This document shows, one piece after another, positions 14,758 to 21,772 of a stretch of 55,337 nt of DNA. The stretch is from the NCBI GenBank assembly GCA_002894685.1, contig NCRC01000025.1, positions 1-55,337 of the forward strand, given 5' to 3'. Under the pieces are notes generated by a model. That model did no database searches, was not told the DNA's origin, and saw only the letters and a list, made by a program, of their open reading frames with translations. This DNA comes from Salinivenus lutea (lineage in GTDB: Bacteria; Bacteroidota; Rhodothermia; Rhodothermales; Salinibacteraceae). Each line of letters opens with the position of its first letter. Position 1 is the stretch's first letter. The position numbers and the translations under genes were made by a program.

Positions 14758-17214
14758 TCAAAACGAGCGCAGGGGGCCGAGGTCCTCCATCCCAATCTGG
14801 TAGTCAAGCCGCCGCGTGCCACGGAACTGAAGGGTGAGGACGTTGGCGTCGGCGTCGTAGTGCCAGCCGTTGCGGCCGCGACGGGCGCGGCGGCGGTACG
14901 TGGCCTCGTTGATCGTGACGCGCTCCGCCGCCTCGGGCACGCGGTGCACCCGAAGCCGGATCGTACGCTCGCGAGGCTGCCCCTCGTACGTGCCCTCGGT
15001 CCGCCCCACGGTCGCCCGGAGGTCGGCCGTCCCGTCCGGCTGCGGGTCCAGGCGGTGGGTGAGGTCGGTACGGGCAAACGCCCCCTGCTGATAGGCAAGC
15101 GTGCGGCCGTCGTCCTCGTAGAGCGTGAACGCCCCGGTGCGCCCCGAATCGGGATAGACGGCGAGCCCGAGGGTGTCGGCCGGCTGGGCCCCGACGTGCG
15201 AGGCCACCGGCCGCAGGGGCACGAGGGCCCCGCCGCGCACGAACAGGGGAATCTGGTCGAGCGGAGCGTCCACCGTGACGGTGCGCCCGCCCTCCACCGC
15301 CTCGTCGGTCCAGTAGTTGATCCACGTCCCCTCCGGCAGCCGCACGGAGCGGGTCCGCGCACTGTCGCGCAGAACGGGGGCGACCAACAGCGACTCGCCG
15401 AGCAGGTAGCTGTCCTGCACCTCGTGCAGCCGCTCCGAGGAGGGGTTCGCGAAGAAGAGGGGCCGGACCAGCGGGAGGCCGGTCCGATGGTTTTTCCAGG
15501 CGAGCGTGTACAGGTACGGCATCAGGCGGTATCGCAGGCGCACCATCGTTCGGCTAATCGATTCCACCCGGTCCCCAAAGCGCCACGGCTCGGTGGGGTA
15601 GTTGGAGCCGTGCGGCCGCATGGTGGGCGACAGGGCGCCGTGCTGCATCCAGCGTGCGTAGAGCTCCGACGAGGTTGAGTCCCCCGCAAATCCCCCGAGG
15701 TCGGACCCATACAGCCCGAAGCCCGACAGGCCCATGTTCAGCAAAAAGGGAATCTGGGGACGCAGGGCCTCGAAACTGCGCCCCACGTCGCCGCTCCACA
15801 GGGTGGGGTTGTACCGCTGCGTGCCCGCGAAGGCCGAGCGGGTGAGGTTGAACACGCGCCGGTTGGGGTGCTGCTCGCGCCACTGGCGAAAGAGGAGCTG
15901 CGCCCAGAGGTGGTTGTAGACATTGTGGACCTTGGTGCGCGGGCCCCGGTGATGATGCATGTCGGTCGGGTGGCGCTCCGGCTCGCCCAGGTCCGTCCAG
16001 AAGCCCGCCATTTCGTCGCCCATGAACGGGGGATGCTGATCGCCCCACCAGTCCCGTGCCTCCGGGTCTGTGACGTCGAGCAGGGCCACCTTACAGCTGT
16101 CGCACGACCACCAGTCGTCCATCACGTAGGGGGAGCCGTCGGCCCGGGTGCCGACGAAACTGCTGTCGAGCGCCGGTTCGTAGAGGCGGGAGGGGCTCGT
16201 GATGTACGTCTCGGTGATGGCCACGGTCTTCACGCCCCGGTCCCGAAAATCGCGCATCATCTCGAACGGCTCCGGGAACGCCGTGCGGTCCCACCGCAGG
16301 TCGCCCATGTGCTCAAACCAGTCGAGGTCCAGGATGACGGCGTCCACGGGGAAATTTTTCCGCCGGAGCGTGTCGACGACCCCGCGGGCCTGGCTCTCGT
16401 TTTCGTAGCCGAACTTCGACTGAATGTACCCGAGGGACCACTTGGGAGGCATCGGCTGGCGGCCCGTGAGCCAGGTGTAGTGCCGCAACTGCTCCGGAAT
16501 GCTCGACGCCGCAAAGACGTAGTAGGTGAGCTCCCCGCCCGGCGTCCGGTAGTGCATCTCCGTTGAGTCGGCCGCGCCGAGGTCGAACCGGGCGGGATGC
16601 GTATTGTCCACGAAGAGGCCGTAGCCGCCCGTCGTCGCGAGGAACGGCACGTTGATCTTCATCGGCATGGGCGGGTCGGCATAGCCGTAGTGGGCCTGGT
16701 TCTCCATACGCAACGTGTCGCCGCGGAGGCCAAACGGCACCCGCTCGCCGGAGCCGTAGAGACGGGTCTCCGGCTTCAGTGAAAACTGCAGGGCCCGTGT
16801 GGTGTCGCGGGCAACAAAGCCGGAGTCAACCTCGGAGACGAGACGGCGTCCGGTGTCGTCCGCGAACCGGAGCCGCAGCGGATCTTTCTGGATGGTGACC
16901 GTCCCCTCAGGAGACCGGACCGAGAGCGTGCACGGCCCCTCCCGAACGGTCGGCGTCACATTGTCGTCGGGAGAGCGGACGACGGAAAACGAACTGTCGG
17001 GCGCCGCGCCGGGCGGCAGCCAATCGACACGCACGACGGCGGGGCGGTAGAACGTGATCCGTGCGGAGGCCCCCTCGCCCTCAACGGTCACCGTCGGCCC
17101 GTCGACCCGATGCTCGACGTACGGGCCGGGCGTGAGAACATCCTCGTCCGCCGGCTGGGACCGTCCCGGGAAGGCAATCAGAAAACCGAGGAGGAACCAG
17201 GCAAGATGCTTCAT
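14758..17214 (-). CDS. secreted glycoside hydrolase family 31 enzyme (alpha-glucosidase-like)
   Basis: An 818-residue exported enzyme. Signal peptide MKHLAWFLLGFLIAFPGRSQ, then an N-terminal beta-sandwich, a (beta/alpha)8 domain and C-terminal beta domains as in GH31. The nucleophile Asp is about residue 408 in WTDLGEPE, and the acid/base Asp about residue 476 in LWSGDVGRSFEALR. Other signatures are VILDLDWFEHMGDLRWD and GSDLGGFAGD. GH31 members act on alpha-glucosidic or alpha-xylosidic bonds by a retaining mechanism; the exact substrate is uncertain. Start at 17214 gives the signal peptide. It stands alone, about 130 bp downstream of nothing on its strand, with rpmE2 following at 129 bp. 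It probably degrades extracytoplasmic alpha-glucans or oligosaccharides. Confidence 0.94.
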   Translation of the reverse strand: MKHLAWFLLGFLIAFPGRSQPADEDVLTPGPYVEHRVDGPTVTVEGEGASARITFYRPAVVRVDWLPPGAAPDSSFSVVRSPDDNVTPTVREGPCTLSVRSPEGTVTIQKDPLRLRFADDTGRRLVSEVDSGFVARDTTRALQFSLKPETRLYGSGERVPFGLRGDTLRMENQAHYGYADPPMPMKINVPFLATTGGYGLFVDNTHPARFDLGAADSTEMHYRTPGGELTYYVFAASSIPEQLRHYTWLTGRQPMPPKWSLGYIQSKFGYENESQARGVVDTLRRKNFPVDAVILDLDWFEHMGDLRWDRTAFPEPFEMMRDFRDRGVKTVAITETYITSPSRLYEPALDSSFVGTRADGSPYVMDDWWSCDSCKVALLDVTDPEARDWWGDQHPPFMGDEMAGFWTDLGEPERHPTDMHHHRGPRTKVHNVYNHLWAQLLFRQWREQHPNRRVFNLTRSAFAGTQRYNPTLWSGDVGRSFEALRPQIPFLLNMGLSGFGLYGSDLGGFAGDSTSSELYARWMQHGALSPTMRPHGSNYPTEPWRFGDRVESISRTMVRLRYRLMPYLYTLAWKNHRTGLPLVRPLFFANPSSERLHEVQDSYLLGESLLVAPVLRDSARTRSVRLPEGTWINYWTDEAVEGGRTVTVDAPLDQIPLFVRGGALVPLRPVASHVGAQPADTLGLAVYPDSGRTGAFTLYEDDGRTLAYQQGAFARTDLTHRLDPQPDGTADLRATVGRTEGTYEGQPRERTIRLRVHRVPEAAERVTINEATYRRRARRGRNGWHYDADANVLTLQFRGTRRLDYQIGMEDLGPLRSF

Positions 17215-17520: not shown

Positions 17521-17535
17521 TTGACAGTCTGTCAA
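17521..17535. promoter_or_regulatory. TetR-type operator 1 (TTGACA-GTC-TGTCAA)
   Basis: Perfect 6+6 palindrome with a 3-bp spacer. First of two tandem copies upstream of the NTF2-like gene; its centre is 26 bp from the next copy. Confidence 0.75.
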
Positions 17536-17546
17536 ACACTTCATTT

Positions 17547-17561
17547 TTGACACAGTGTCAA
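17547..17561. promoter_or_regulatory. TetR-type operator 2 (TTGACA-CAG-TGTCAA)
   Basis: Perfect palindrome, second of the tandem pair, about 100 bp upstream of the NTF2-like start codon. Confidence 0.75.
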
Positions 17562-17661
17562 CGAGTGAAGCACAGCGGGCCCGAGCCGCGAGGAGGCCGG
17601 CTCCGCCCCGCTGCGGTCGGAAGATCTCCTCATGCCGTGCTCGCCCATCCTCCCCATTGCC

Positions 17662-18165
17662 ATGTACCACTCCATCGTCAAGCGCATTGCGCAAAACGCC
17701 TTTGAGGATCTCTCGGACCGACACGTCGAGCCACTGATCGAGAAATCGGCACCGGACCTCCGGCACACGTTTGCCGGTGATCACGCCCTCGGCGGTACAC
17801 GCCACTCCCGCGAGGCCTTTCGTGCCTGGCTGGAGCGCCTCTACCGGCTGTTTCCCGAACTGACCTTCACGGTCCGTGACATGATGGTCAGCGGCCCGCC
17901 CTGGAATACGCGGCTGGCATTGTCCTGGGCCGATCGGGGCGTGGCCGCCGACGGGGCCGACTACGAAAACGAGGGCGTCCACGTCCTTCGCCTACAGTGG
18001 GGGCGCCTCGTGGAACTGGAGGCGCATCTCGACACCCAGCACCTGGAGCGCACGCTCGATCGGATGGCGGCTGCCGGCATCGAGGAGGCCGCCGCGGACC
18101 CGATAGAGGAGACGCCCATCGACGCCGGGGGGGCGGTCGCTGCCGGTCCGGTTGCGGCCTCCTGA
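17662..18165 (+). CDS. NTF2-like / SnoaL-type protein, TetR-regulon member
   Basis: A 167-residue protein with a SnoaL-like (NTF2) fold, the family of small polyketide cyclases, ketosteroid isomerase relatives and many uncharacterised proteins. Supporting runs are SREAFRAWLERLYRLFPELT, FTVRDMMVSGPPWNTRLALS and the core strand ENEGVHVLRLQWGRLVELEA. A C-terminal Ala/Glu/Pro-rich tail of about 35 residues extends beyond the domain. The Met at 17662 was chosen over 17632. Two TTGACA-N3-TGTCAA palindromes lie upstream, so it is probably repressed by the TetR protein encoded 2 kb away. The membrane-protein gene follows at 48 bp. Confidence 0.78.
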   Translation: MYHSIVKRIAQNAFEDLSDRHVEPLIEKSAPDLRHTFAGDHALGGTRHSREAFRAWLERLYRLFPELTFTVRDMMVSGPPWNTRLALSWADRGVAADGADYENEGVHVLRLQWGRLVELEAHLDTQHLERTLDRMAAAGIEEAAADPIEETPIDAGGAVAAGPVAAS

Positions 18166-18213
18166 TCCCACACGTCCCTCGTTGCGCTGTCCTTCACGAG
18201 ATACATTTGTGAC

Positions 18214-18651
18214 ATGTCCCTCCGCCGAAAAGTTGCCGCTGCATTTTACCTCGTCAACTCGCTCGTCAGCCTGGTGCTCGGCTCAACGTACCTGCTCCGC
18301 AGCTCCTTCATGCCCTACCACGCCGACGCACTGGAGCGCTCGTGGACCGAAGTTGAGCCGGCGCTCCAGACGCTGCTGGGGGCGCTCATGGACGTGGCCG
18401 GGGCCGGATGGGTCGGGATTGGGGTGGCGACCCTCGTCCTCGTGGCCGTACCGATGCGACGCGGGGAGCAATGGGGCCGTCTCCTCATTCCCGCGCTGTT
18501 CTTGATCTTCTACGTCCCCACTCTCTTTGCCACGATTGCCGTGATGAACGGGACGCCCGCCACCCCTCCGTGGTACGGCAACGCCGTCGCGTGCCTCGCA
18601 ACACTGGCCGGCGTCCTGATCGATGCGCCCTGGCGCTCGCGCTCCGGATGA
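18214..18651 (+). CDS. four-TM membrane protein, TetR-regulon neighbour
   Basis: A 145-residue integral membrane protein with about four helices: near residues 5-27 (VAAAFYLVNSLVSLVLGSTY), 55-78 (GAGWVGIGVATLVLVAVPM), 88-108 (LLIPALFLIFYVPTLFATIA) and 122-138. I do not recognise the family with certainty; it resembles small DoxX-like or DUF4345-like proteins in size and topology. It starts 48 bp after the NTF2-like gene and is probably cotranscribed, hence under the same twin operators. No operator copy lies directly upstream of it. Confidence 0.8.
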   Translation: MSLRRKVAAAFYLVNSLVSLVLGSTYLLRSSFMPYHADALERSWTEVEPALQTLLGALMDVAGAGWVGIGVATLVLVAVPMRRGEQWGRLLIPALFLIFYVPTLFATIAVMNGTPATPPWYGNAVACLATLAGVLIDAPWRSRSG

Positions 18652-18686
18652 AGCCCCCATCCCGCCCCGTATCGTGCACCCCCTTG

Positions 18687-18701
18687 TTGACAAATCGTCA
18701 A
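18687..18701. promoter_or_regulatory. TetR-type operator 3 (TTGACA-AAT-CGTCAA)
   Basis: One mismatch from the palindrome. It lies 22 bp before the earliest possible start of the DUF2141 gene (18724). Confidence 0.7.
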
Positions 18702-18786
18702 TAAAAGAACAGTTGTTATCGCTATGACAATCGACCCTGAGCCATCCGCTCAATCTGAGGACTCCCTCGTCGCCAATGGGTTGCTC

Positions 18787-19272
18787 ATGCTCCGCCCTCC
18801 CCGACTCCTGACTCGACTGATTCCTTGCCGGGTTCGATTTGGTCTTCTGCTCGCGGTCCTGCTCACCGGCACCGGGCCGGTCTCTCCGGTTCACGCGCAG
18901 TCGTCTGATGCGCCGGCGAGCCCCCTCATCATCCACGTCGACGGGCTCGAGAGCAACAAGGGGTCCGTTCGCGCCGAACTGACCACCGACGCCCACTACG
19001 ACTCGGACGGCAACGTGCGGGCCGCCGTGCTCCCCATCGAGGACCGGGAGGCGCACTGGACGGTCGACGACCTTCCTCCCGGCACCTACGCCGTGCGGCT
19101 CTACCACGACGAAGACGACGACGGCGAGCTGGATACCAACATGTTCGGCGTGCCGCAAGAACCGTTCGGCTTCTCGAACAACGCTCGGGGCAACATGGGC
19201 CCGCCCGATTTTGAGGACGCTGCCTTCACGCTCGGGTCCGACTCGCTCTCGATGACGATCACAGCCGAATAA
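18787..19272 (+). CDS. DUF2141 secreted protein
   Basis: About 161 residues from the chosen Met. A basic N-region and hydrophobic stretch (RVRFGLLLAVLLTGTGPVSP, cleavage after VHAQ) form a signal peptide. The mature part is a DUF2141 beta-sandwich with the family pattern LPPGTYAVRLYHDEDDDGEL, then the segment DTNMFGVPQEPFGFSNNARG and a C-terminal SMTITAE strand. DUF2141 proteins are periplasmic or surface proteins of unknown function. The frame is open from 18724 with another ATG, which would add 21 acidic residues ahead of the signal; 18787 fits better. Operator 3 lies upstream, so TetR control is likely. Confidence 0.88.
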   Translation: MLRPPRLLTRLIPCRVRFGLLLAVLLTGTGPVSPVHAQSSDAPASPLIIHVDGLESNKGSVRAELTTDAHYDSDGNVRAAVLPIEDREAHWTVDDLPPGTYAVRLYHDEDDDGELDTNMFGVPQEPFGFSNNARGNMGPPDFEDAAFTLGSDSLSMTITAE

Positions 19273-19389
19273 CCATCCCCGTTGACGATGCCACCGCGCC
19301 CATCCATCGCCGCTCCCGTCGGGCGTCCGACGATGGAGGCCGCCACGCCTCTCCAAGCGGTGCCCGGATCCCGAATGCCCCCCGCATCG

Positions 19390-19533
19390 CCGGAACGTAC
19401 GGTGCGGTCCTCGCGCAGCGGCACGTGCAATACAGCCGGTTGCAGCCCGGGGACGCTGCGCTGTCTACGGCCGTGGCGCTGGGCATCGACGTGGCCGTGA
19501 ACGTGATCACCGAGTTTGTCGGACGCCCGTAGC
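19390..19533 (+). pseudogene. C-terminal remnant of an unidentified gene
   Basis: One frame ending in TAG at 19531-19533 reads RIAGTYGAVLAQRHVQYSRL and continues QPGDAALSTAVALGIDVAVN then VITEFVGRP. Nearly every third codon base is G or C, the signature of real coding sequence here, while upstream of about 19390 this bias fades and no start codon fits. It is most likely the end of a gene truncated by deletion, lying between the DUF2141 gene and tetR. I cannot name its family. Confidence 0.5.
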
Positions 19534-19570
19534 GGAACGGCGCCCCGGTCCATACGAGAACACCACGCCG

Positions 19571-19585
19571 TTGACATCGTGTCAA
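19571..19585. promoter_or_regulatory. TetR-type operator 4 (TTGACA-TCG-TGTCAA)
   Basis: Perfect palindrome 40 bp upstream of the tetR start codon, the expected place for autoregulation. Confidence 0.78.
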
Positions 19586-19625
19586 TGCCCAACGAAATCC
19601 CGCCCCTAACTCCCACCCCCTTTTC

Positions 19626-20318
19626 ATGTCGTCAATCGAAGAGCGCCAACGCGAAGAAAAAGAACAGCGCCGCCGGACCATCCTCGACGCTGCGGAAACC
19701 GTCCTGGAGACGAAGGGCCGTGACGAGATGACGATGGCCGACATTGCCGAGGAGGCCCGGTTGAGCCGGAGTCTCTTGTACGTGTATTTCGAGGACATGG
19801 ATGACATTGTGCTCGGGGTAACCCACCGCGCATTTCAGTCAATGAGGCGGCGGTTTCAGTCCGGTGTGACCCAGCACGACACGGGCCTGCGCCAGATTCG
19901 CGCAGTTGGCGATGCCTACGTCGCGTTCGCCCAGGAGGAGCCGACCTACTTTGACCTTGTGGCCGAGTTCGAATCCCGCGCGGCCGATCCGGAGGAGGCG
20001 ACTGCTCGCATGCGACAGTGCCTCGCCGAGGCGGACCGGGCCCTGGAGGTGATGGCCGACGCCATTCAGAACGGCATCGACGACGACTCCATTCGTGCCG
20101 ACCTCGACCCGATGCAGACCGCCGTGACGCTTTGGGGGTGCACCCACGGCCTCATTCAACTCGCTGCCAACAAGGGGACGGGACTCGAGCAGCGCTATGA
20201 ACTGTCCTCCGCTGCTCTCGTCGACGAGGGACTCAGCTTTCTCGGCGTGTCCCTGGCCGGCCAGCCCCCGGACGCCCCCGCGGAGACGCTCCCGGCCGAC
20301 CAAAACGGCAATGCCTAG
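19626..20318 (+). CDS. TetR/AcrR family transcriptional repressor
   Basis: A 230-residue regulator. The N-terminal winged TetR helix-turn-helix reads TILDAAETVLETKGRDEMTM, then ADIAEEARLSRSLLYVYFED. The C-terminal ligand domain includes DLVAEFESRAADPEEATARM and the WGCTHGLIQLAANKG segment of the WHG type of TetR proteins. An acidic/Pro tail ends the protein. It is autoregulated in all likelihood: the palindrome TTGACA-N3-TGTCAA lies 40 bp before its start and five further copies lie around adjacent genes. Such proteins usually repress efflux genes until a small hydrophobic ligand binds; the truncated TolC-like gene next door fits. The ligand is not known. Confidence 0.95.
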   Translation: MSSIEERQREEKEQRRRTILDAAETVLETKGRDEMTMADIAEEARLSRSLLYVYFEDMDDIVLGVTHRAFQSMRRRFQSGVTQHDTGLRQIRAVGDAYVAFAQEEPTYFDLVAEFESRAADPEEATARMRQCLAEADRALEVMADAIQNGIDDDSIRADLDPMQTAVTLWGCTHGLIQLAANKGTGLEQRYELSSAALVDEGLSFLGVSLAGQPPDAPAETLPADQNGNA

Positions 20319-20348
20319 GCATGAACAGGATGTTAAAATCTTAGCTCG

Positions 20349-20363
20349 TTGAGACGGTGTCAA
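20349..20363. promoter_or_regulatory. TetR-type operator 5 (TTGAGA-CGG-TGTCAA)
   Basis: One mismatch from the palindrome, 30 bp after the tetR stop codon and 106 bp before operator 6. Probably upstream of the TolC-like promoter. Confidence 0.65.
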
Positions 20364-20454
20364 CGACCAAAGCAAGCGGGGCCCGATCGGCCTGGGCGGG
20401 GCCGCGACCCCTCCCAACTGCGTGTCCCCCGCAACCCATTTTTTTGCCCGCCTA

Positions 20455-20469
20455 TTGACAATATGTCAA
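20455..20469. promoter_or_regulatory. TetR-type operator 6 (TTGACA-ATA-TGTCAA) over the TolC-like start
   Basis: Perfect palindrome covering the first possible start codon (20463) of the TolC-like fragment. It suggests the real start is 20478 or 20484, or that transcription begins upstream at operator 5. Confidence 0.75.
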
Positions 20470-20930
20470 ATAAAAACATGGTGATGAGCTTGCAGGTGCG
20501 ATGCCTCATGGGTCTCGTTGTGGTCTGCGGCTTCGGGGTGGCCATCGACCCGGCCCGTGCTCAGGCCCCCGCCCATGCCCCCTCGTCGGAGGCCTCCACT
20601 GTTGTGGACGAGCTCGTGCAGGAAGCACTGGAAAATAACCTGTCCGTTGAGCAGGAGCGCATCGCGTTGGAGCAGCGCCGCGCAGCCCTTGCGGAGACGA
20701 GGAACCAGTACCTGCCCAGTCTCGACCTGAGCGCCCGGTACACGCGCAGCCGGGGCGGCCGGACCATCGACGTCCCGGTGGGGGACGCTGTGAATCCTGC
20801 GTATCGGGCCCTGGATGACATGAACCCAGACCGGTCGTTCTCGCGAGTTCAGAATCGGGACATCTCGCTGCTCCGGGAGAAGGAGCAACGAACGGAGCTT
20901 CAGCTCCGCCAGCCCTTCTCTCCCCTTCCT
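20463..20930 (+). pseudogene. truncated TolC-like outer-membrane efflux protein
   Basis: From ATG 20463 (or 20484, MSLQVRCLMGLVVVCGFGVA) the frame begins with a signal peptide and then a TolC N-terminus: STVVDELVQEALENNLSVEQ, ERIALEQRRAALAETRNQYL, PSLDLSARYTR, ending in TELQLRQPFS. This is the first repeat half of the family (usually about 430-470 residues). After about codon 155 the homology ends and the frame, open to 21203, runs antisense through the slipin gene. No membrane-fusion protein or RND pump gene follows. I infer a deletion that removed most of tolC and the rest of an efflux operon. The operators upstream remain. Confidence 0.7.
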
Positions 20931-20998: not shown

Positions 20999-21772
20999 CT
21001 ACGAGGGACCCGGCTCGTCCCCGATGGCTTCCAGCGCCCGCAGGGCCTCGGCGGGCACCGCGAAGACGACGGTATTCGAGTCGTCGCTGCTGAGGCTGTT
21101 GAGCGTCTGGAGGGTGCGGAGATGCAGGGCGCCGTCCTCGTTGTTGAGGATGGCGGCCGCGTCGGCCATGTTCTGGGCGGCCTCCAGTTCGCCTTCCGCC
21201 TGAATGGTCACGGCGCGGCGCTCCCGCTCGGCTTCGGCCTGGCGGGCAATCACCCGCTTCATGTTCTCCGCGAGGATAATGTCCTTGAGCTCCACGGACT
21301 GCACCTCGATGCCCCAGGGATCGGTGGCCTCGTCGATAATCTCGCGAATCTGACGCGAAATGCGTTCCCGTTCGGCCAGCAGCGCGTCGAGGTCCACTTC
21401 CCCCACAATGTTGCGCATGGTGGTTTGCGCCAGCTGCTGGGTGGCGTACATGTACTCCTCCACCTCCAGAATGGCCTTCTTCGCGTCCCGCACCTGATAA
21501 TAGATGACGGCATCGATCTCGACGGTCACGTTGTCCCGGGTGATGCTTTCCTGCCGCGGCACGTCGACTGCCTTGACGCGCATGTCCACCCGCTCCCACG
21601 ATTGGATGAACGGAATCACGGTGCCGAGGCCCGGCTCCATGACCTTCACAAACTGGCCGAGCATGAATTTGACGCCGCGCTCGTACTCTTTGACCACCTT
21701 GAAGGTGCGCACCAGGCCCATCCCGGCGAGAAGAACGACCGTGAGTACCACGTACACTGAGAGGGACAGCAT
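20999..21772 (-). CDS. slipin / stomatin-like band 7 (SPFH) protein
   Basis: A 257-residue SPFH protein. A single N-terminal membrane segment (MLSLSVYVVLTVVLLAGMGL) is followed by the band 7 domain: VVKEYERGVKFMLGQFVKVM, PGLGTVIPFIQSWERVDMRV, IDAVIYYQVRDAKKAILEVE, RNIVGEVDLDALLAERERIS. A helical C-terminal part has QAEAERERRAVTIQAEGELE. The length is that of bacterial slipins, which oligomerise in membranes and are often paired with an NfeD protein; none is present here. The start gives the TM helix directly. The gene is convergent with the TolC fragment. Confidence 0.95.
   Translation of the reverse strand: MLSLSVYVVLTVVLLAGMGLVRTFKVVKEYERGVKFMLGQFVKVMEPGLGTVIPFIQSWERVDMRVKAVDVPRQESITRDNVTVEIDAVIYYQVRDAKKAILEVEEYMYATQQLAQTTMRNIVGEVDLDALLAERERISRQIREIIDEATDPWGIEVQSVELKDIILAENMKRVIARQAEAERERRAVTIQAEGELEAAQNMADAAAILNNEDGALHLRTLQTLNSLSSDDSNTVVFAVPAEALRALEAIGDEPGPS

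What the first reader, a model, noticed from the sequence alone, without database searches (positions are those of the whole stretch)
17521..20469. A local TetR regulon defined by six copies of TTGACA-N3-TGTCAA
Seen: six 15-bp palindromes (four perfect, two with one mismatch) lie at 17521, 17547, 18687, 19571, 20349 and 20455. They fall only in gaps before the NTF2-like gene (two tandem), DUF2141 gene, tetR and the TolC-like gene. With 12 fixed bases an exact match is expected about 0.003 times by chance in a window this size. Known: TetR proteins bind such palindromes and regulate themselves. Inference: the encoded TetR represses all these units, controlling an envelope/efflux response whose ligand is unknown. 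The TTGACA half site could double as a -35.
Basis: partly seen in the sequence, partly recalled or inferred. Interest (0 to 1): 0.78.

Follow-up and report, generated by a model that had tools for sequence, protein, structure and literature searches.

The report
Repressor circuit that outlived its pump
A salt-loving bacterium keeps a gene switch (a TetR-type repressor) and several copies of the DNA site it most likely grips, although the drug-type pump that the same switch sits beside in related bacteria is gone, and the sites now stand in front of other small genes.

Summary
The six palindromes are real: 4 exact and 2 one-mismatch copies of TTGACA-N3-TGTCAA, with only one further copy at up to one mismatch in the 3.55-Mb genome. 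The site tracks the tetR gene. In the 16 genomes of the order with a close TetR orthologue, 36 of 38 exact TTGACRNNNYGTCAA matches lie within about 4.2 kb of tetR; the other 98 genomes have 51, about control level. A local TetR regulon is thus well supported. The 'efflux' part is not. In relatives such sites flank tetR in front of a tolC-mfp-RND pump. In the window only about 150 of some 500 TolC residues remain, and no close orthologue of the RND pump was found in the 13 genomes of the genus. TetR is intact and under purifying selection between species. Best reading: a local repressor that lost its pump, still regulates itself, and now controls a SnoaL-like/membrane-protein pair and a DUF2141 gene left from the pump cluster. 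The -35 idea is not supported. Binding, sign of regulation and ligand are untested.

The parts
17521..17535 (.). operator 1 (exact palindrome), first of a tandem pair 26 bp apart
   Evidence: half-sites identical in G013, one change in the free centre
17547..17561 (.). operator 2 (exact), 100 bp before the SnoaL-like start
   Evidence: identical in G013
17662..18165 (+). SnoaL-like (NTF2-fold) gene, 167 aa from the ATG at 17662 (an ATG at 17632 in frame is also possible)
   Evidence: Pfam SnoaL_2 E=1.4e-11; conserved in G013 and G021, dN/dS 0.16 to G021
18214..18651 (+). 145-aa predicted multi-helix membrane protein, perhaps co-transcribed with SnoaL
   Evidence: hydropathy; 98% and 80% identical in G013 and G021; dN/dS 0.16
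18687..18701 (.). operator 3, TTGACAAATCGTCAA, fits TTGACRnnnYGTCAA
   Evidence: a half-site base differs in G013, where DUF2141 is mostly deleted
18787..19272 (+). DUF2141 gene (start could be 18724), probable survivor of the pump cluster
   Evidence: Pfam DUF2141 E=1.2e-32; DUF2141 relatives lie inside or at the end of the pump cluster in G002 and G059
19571..19585 (.). operator 4 (exact), 40 bp before tetR: likely autoregulatory site
   Evidence: identical in G013
19626..20318 (+). tetR, 230 aa
   Evidence: Pfam TetR_N E=6.8e-12 and TetR_C_33; nine-helix model, pLDDT 90.5; orthologues in 18 other genomes of the order
20349..20363 (.). operator 5, one mismatch, 30 bp after tetR; drifting
   Evidence: 3 of 15 bases differ in G013
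20439..20445 (+). T7 tract in front of operator 6, as before the tetR-tolC site in several pump-bearing relatives
20455..20469 (.). operator 6 (exact), most likely the old tolC promoter site
20478..20918 (+). 5' remnant of tolC (about 150 of some 500 residues); the frame runs on into sequence antisense to the Band 7 gene
   Evidence: Pfam OEP, profile positions 2-73 of 187; E=1.7e-28 to G004 TolC

Best explanation
The six palindromes are operators of the TetR protein encoded at 19626-20318. The TetR descends from a local, self-regulating repressor of a tolC-mfp-RND efflux pump. In this genus the pump was lost but, in 8 of 13 genomes, the repressor and operators stayed. In the window the TetR dimer most likely (inferred) sits on 19571 to limit its own synthesis, on the tandem pair 17521/17547 to repress the SnoaL-like/membrane-protein pair, and on 18687 to repress DUF2141, and leaves the DNA when an unknown, perhaps lipophilic, ligand binds. 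Sites 20349 and 20455 are leftovers of the dead tolC promoter. Shown: sites, near-exclusivity to the locus, co-occurrence with tetR across the order, pump in relatives, its loss here, purifying selection on tetR. Inferred: binding, repression, ligand, co-transcription.
For: Sites confirmed and nearly exclusive in the genome. In the 16 genomes with a close orthologue, 36 of 38 exact TTGACRNNNYGTCAA matches lie within about 4.2 kb of tetR; 51 in the other 98 genomes; reversed control 49 in all 114 (my sums from the table; orthologues). Three more distant orthologues carry TTGACY-N3-RGTCAA instead, with R48 of the HTH replaced by K; the two groups are separated with 100/100 support. tolC, mfp and RND homologues lie directly beyond tetR in G047, G056, G057, G059, G044, G053 and G086; the gene row is cut by contig ends in G055, G001, G004 and G002. 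TolC truncated; close RND orthologue (56-59%) only in G001, G002 and G004 of 27 family genomes. TetR dN/dS 0.10-0.25 in 27 of 28 pairs within the genus. Half-sites at 17521, 17547 and 19571 are unchanged in G013.
Against: No binding or expression data, and no promoter could be recognised. In G011, G012, G014 and G015 the sites near tetR are mostly degraded, and in G012 and G015 the only exact TTGACRNNNYGTCAA match is 3.8-3.9 kb away. The closest pair, G000/G013, shows dN/dS 0.78 for tetR and 0.57 for SnoaL, on 14 changes each. The SnoaL/membrane pair was found beside this tetR in only three genomes. The grouping of the genus's TetRs has weak support (61/62), so one loss or several is not decided. 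Nineteen copies with up to 2 mismatches lie elsewhere in the genome against 13 for the control.
Confidence: 0.72

Rival explanations
1. One reading: a working TetR regulon that controls an envelope/efflux response including the TolC-like gene.
For: Sites stand before a tolC start, and in relatives before whole pumps. DUF2141 and a membrane protein could be envelope functions.
Against: TolC is cut to about 150 residues, and the RND proteins listed for this genome are at most 36% identical to the cognate pump. G013 lacks the tolC remnant altogether.
Confidence: 0.08
2. The whole locus is a decaying relic: TetR and operators persist by chance and regulate nothing that matters.
For: tolC truncated, DUF2141 mostly deleted in G013, operator 20349 drifting, degraded sites in the S. 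ruber group, tetR dN/dS 0.78 for the closest pair.
Against: tetR without internal stops in all 8 genus members that have it, with dN/dS 0.10-0.25 in the other 27 pairs; half-sites before SnoaL and tetR unchanged between G000 and G013 while the 447 bp before SnoaL are 91% identical.
Confidence: 0.13
3. The palindromes serve a different regulator, or are promoter -35 boxes, and lie beside tetR by chance.
For: TTGACA equals the sigma-70 -35 consensus (recalled); G059 has TATACT 17 bp downstream; the mean -10 match is slightly above background.
Against: Co-occurrence with this tetR across the order, none in 18 paralogue loci, site and HTH residue differ together between the two TetR groups. -10 match only 2-3 of 6 at the window sites; 24 orthologous sites mean 2.67 against 2.26 background.
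Confidence: 0.05
4. The TetR acts as an activator, or the tandem pair controls the divergent glycoside hydrolase family 31 gene at 14758-17214 and not SnoaL.
For: The pair lies between the two genes (GH31 by Pfam); some TetR-family proteins activate, for example FasR (named an activator).
Against: The pair is 307 bp from the GH31 start and 100 bp from SnoaL. The order pair-SnoaL-membrane gene is kept in G021, whose held neighbourhood has no GH31 homologue, although its contig ends there.
Confidence: 0.07

Closest known systems
Local TetR-family repressors of RND pumps (AcrR of acrAB, TtgR of ttgABC, MtrR of mtrCDE; operons recalled)
   Same: TetR fold, a site before its own gene, and sites in front of a tolC-mfp-RND cluster in relatives
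   Different: In this genome and its genus the cognate pump was not found. Far below the NCBIfam cut-offs of AcrR and MtrR. tetR and tolC lie in tandem.
RutR-type TetR operators (TTGACCA..TGGTCAA, recalled)
   Same: TTGAC / GTCAA outer half-sites
   Different: Different inner bases and neighbours; scores 21.9 bits against a RutR cut-off of 368
TetR-family proteins that bind as two dimers on overlapping or adjacent sites (QacR, recalled; DarR, only the title of 8svd seen)
   Same: In pump-bearing relatives a second half-site GTCAA lies 18 bp from the first (8 of 25 sites); tandem palindromes 24-27 bp apart
   Different: The 18-bp half-site is absent from the six window sites; stoichiometry untested
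Regulon shifts between lineages such as PsrA (PMC5343134, passages seen)
   Same: A TetR-family regulator with a changed target set
   Different: Here a local regulator whose main target was deleted while operators remained as traces

Membership tests
TetR family of regulators | N-terminal TetR HTH domain | tested here: met
   PF00440 E=6.8e-12, 45.4 bits against a cut-off of 24
TetR family of regulators | all-helical two-domain fold | tested here: met
   nine helices, pLDDT 90.5; most named PDB matches are TetR-family proteins; top row 3on2_A (titled unknown function) Z 18.8, rmsd 4.2, 189 aligned
TetR family of regulators | palindromic operator at its own promoter | tested here: met
   site 19571 and orthologous sites; only the sequence was tested, binding was not
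TetR family of regulators | ligand-released DNA binding | not testable with these tools
   needs protein
AcrR/TtgR-like local repressor of an RND pump | adjacent intact cognate pump genes | tested here: not met
   tolC truncated, mfp and RND not found here; met in relatives
AcrR/TtgR-like local repressor of an RND pump | sequence above family model cut-off (AcrR NF007949, MtrR NF051852) | tested here: not met
   23.6 vs 271 bits and 27.2 vs 280 bits
AcrR/TtgR-like local repressor of an RND pump | represses the pump promoter | not testable with these tools
   needs a reporter assay in a pump-bearing relative
RutR (pyrimidine regulator) | RutR model cut-off | tested here: not met
   21.9 vs 368 bits

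The most novel reading that the evidence does not exclude
After losing its pump, one TetR-operator module was put to new use several times within a genus: SnoaL plus a 145-aa membrane protein in the window's branch, a DoxX_2-like membrane gene (or the divergent 5'-nucleotidase) in the S. ruber branch, and a 146-aa hydrophobic protein in G020. Small membrane proteins would have repeatedly replaced an RND pump as the answer to the same signal.
Probability: 0.25. Interest if true: 0.6.

Novelty: new member of a known kind. Interest (0 to 1): 0.42.

Why it matters
It is a traceable case of what happens to a local repressor when its target pump is deleted. The operators can be followed across an order, with pump-bearing relatives, a half-deleted tolC, and genomes where only regulator and sites remain. 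The site is sharp enough for a direct binding test, and the difference in inner base and HTH residue (R48 or K) between the two TetR groups makes a specificity prediction. In the listings (open-access library only; two searches showed 20 of 170 and 15 of 39 papers) I saw no paper that describes this.

Tried and rejected
-35 idea: best TATAAT-like hexamer 15-19 bp from each TTGACA. 2-3 of 6 at the window sites; 24 orthologous sites from 11 genomes mean 2.67 against background 2.26; only G059 reaches 5 of 6. Rejected as a general property, though the mean is slightly above background.

A hidden wider regulon: copies with up to 2 mismatches number 25 in the genome, 19 of them away from the locus, against 13 for the control. 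This small excess was not followed up. Three exact TTGACRNNNYGTCAA matches in G003 and G053 that I looked at all lie inside long reading frames; the other off-locus matches were not inspected. The one-mismatch copy at C10:17725 equals the control's single match and was not followed to relatives.

Target genes beside tetR in G011, G012, G014 and G015: my ORF comparison did not settle this. One candidate is a 164-aa reading frame beyond tetR in G015 with a 72% hit in G014 and only short 40% hits in G012 and G011, without a Pfam match. Left open.

Plasmid search with the locus: only a 3-5% partial match in 4 Azospirillum records. Paper searches gave nothing to the point (listings only, and for only part of the list); PMC545781 has TTGACA only in sites of other regulators (passages seen). 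Fold search gave the generic TetR fold and no ligand clue beyond frequent fatty-acid/acyl-CoA regulators. A first alignment was wrong because minus-strand loci were not turned; it was redone and only the redone version is used. In one search the region beyond about 20430 does not align (G013 has a deletion there), so its 5 of 15 for site 20455 only means absence. My gene calls come from a simple codon-usage script of my own, not an annotation.
Full report
OBSERVATION. The chance expectation for an exact copy is 0.0033 per window with equal bases and 0.00037 with the window's own composition. In the assembly of the same genome (76 contigs, 99.59% complete) the four exact copies are the only ones, and one further one-mismatch copy exists, at C10:17725. 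With up to two mismatches the count is 25, 19 of them away from the locus, against 13 for the reversed control.

LINK TO THE TETR. A TetR search of 27 family genomes gives ten orthologues besides the window's. With up to 2 mismatches, the palindrome is present in all ten of these loci (L009-L018) and in none of the 18 loci fetched for paralogues only (L019-L032, L034-L037). At order level 19 of 114 genomes have a match at E <= 1e-25. Sixteen of these are of the TTGACA type. In these 16, one search gives 38 exact TTGACRNNNYGTCAA matches, of which 36 lie within about 4.2 kb of tetR (the two others are in G055). The remaining 98 genomes have 51 matches, about 0.5 each. The reversed control has 49 in 114. 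These sums are mine from the table, which gives counts for every genome but does not list every match. Three off-locus matches that I inspected (two in G003, one in G053) lie inside reading frames.

SITE AND PROTEIN DIFFER TOGETHER. Allowing one mismatch in the ten outer bases, palindromes lie on both sides of tetR in all 18 orthologue loci with both flanks readable (17, G004); in G002 the contig ends inside tetR. G044, G053 and G086, the three most distant orthologues (36-41% identity), have TTGACY-N3-RGTCAA instead. R48, the first residue of the third helix of the model, is K in exactly these three of 19 sequences. They form one side of a branch with 100/100 support, so this may be a single event. 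AlphaFold2 gives a normal nine-helix TetR fold.

THE ANCESTRAL TARGET. In G047, G056, G057, G059, G044, G053 and G086 the gene after tetR is tolC, followed by mfp and RND genes (family names for the G004 and G056 sets). In G055, G001, G004 and G002 the row is cut by contig ends but starts or continues the same way. DUF2141 relatives lie between tolC and mfp in G002 and after RND in G059. In these 11 pump-bearing genomes the site often has a further GTCAA 18 bp on: 8 of 25 sites, against 2 or fewer at any other offset of 15-60 bp. A run of six or more T lies within 30 bp upstream of 7 of the 25 sites, in 6 of the 11 genomes, always between tetR and tolC.

LOSS HERE. The window's tolC matches only the first 150 or so residues of intact TolC, with homology ending near 20918. 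A Band 7 (slipin-type) gene on the other strand follows. Site 20455 is the only one of the six with a T run (T7) upstream, which marks it as the likely old tolC promoter site. A close RND orthologue (56-59% identity) was found only in G001, G002 and G004; the 13 genomes of the window's genus have only distant paralogues, 36% or less among the matches listed. Three of these 13 are only 62-83% complete, but two are assembled in 2-3 contigs at 99%.

WHAT THE SITES NOW FACE. Downstream of the tandem pair are a SnoaL-like gene and a 145-aa hydrophobic protein, both kept beside tetR in G013 and G021, with dN/dS 0.16-0.17 to G021. DUF2141 has site 18687, and tetR has site 19571 40 bp before its start. 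Between G000 and G013 the half-sites at 17521, 17547 and 19571 are unchanged, while 18687, whose gene is mostly gone in G013, and 20349 differ. In the S. ruber branch (G012, G014, G015) an exact TTGACRNNNYGTCAA match lies between a DoxX_2-like gene and a 5'-nucleotidase; none with up to 2 mismatches in the outer bases lies within 320 bp upstream of the nucleotidase in G000, G011, G013, G020 and G021. In G020 a 146-aa hydrophobic protein stands in the tolC place.

SELECTION. tetR has dN/dS 0.10-0.25 in 27 of 28 pairs within the genus. The exception is G000/G013 (0.78 on 14 changes), too few to judge.

MECHANISM. Most likely a self-limiting repressor: the dimer covers the palindromes until an unknown ligand releases it. 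I could not identify promoters; TTGACA does not behave as a -35. Binding, sign, ligand and co-transcription are inference.

VERDICT. A real, local TetR regulon of an ordinary kind, with an informative history: regulator and operators outlived the pump. Species names other than those are recalled: the length of G015 contig C1, 3,551,823 bases, fits the S. ruber type-strain chromosome, hence 'S. ruber branch'.

Noticed in passing
L095-L102, L051, L055, L054 (pump-bearing relatives): A second half-site GTCAA lies exactly 18 bp beyond the palindrome at 8 of 25 sites, suggesting two dimers per operator; it is missing at the window's six sites.
   Followed up: partly
window 20439-20445; L095, L098, L051, L055, L100, L102: A run of 6-8 T within 30 bp upstream of the tetR-tolC operator (7 of 25 sites, 6 of 11 genomes) but not of the site before tetR; possibly a promoter element.
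   Followed up: partly
L048:4959-4973, L049:4417-4431, L050:4603-4617: Operator-like site between a DoxX_2-like gene and a 5'-nucleotidase about 4 kb from tetR in three Salinibacter-group genomes.
   Followed up: partly
L111:5213-5644, L110:5211-5642: Homologues (65%) of the window's 145-aa membrane protein lie next to a gene for an FAD-dependent oxidoreductase (Pfam for the G047 one) in G047 and G069, without the palindrome nearby.
   Followed up: no
L055:5009-5699: tetR of G004 is read in two overlapping frames (a frameshift or an assembly error), although its operators and the neighbouring tolC and mfp genes look whole.
   Followed up: no
L056:7726-7740 (G000:C10:17725): The only off-locus one-mismatch copy in the genome, between a 145-aa reading frame and a divergent 206-aa one, neither with a Pfam match.
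   Followed up: no
window 20999-21772: Band 7 (slipin-type) gene on the minus strand directly beyond the tolC stump; absent at this place in G013.
   Followed up: no
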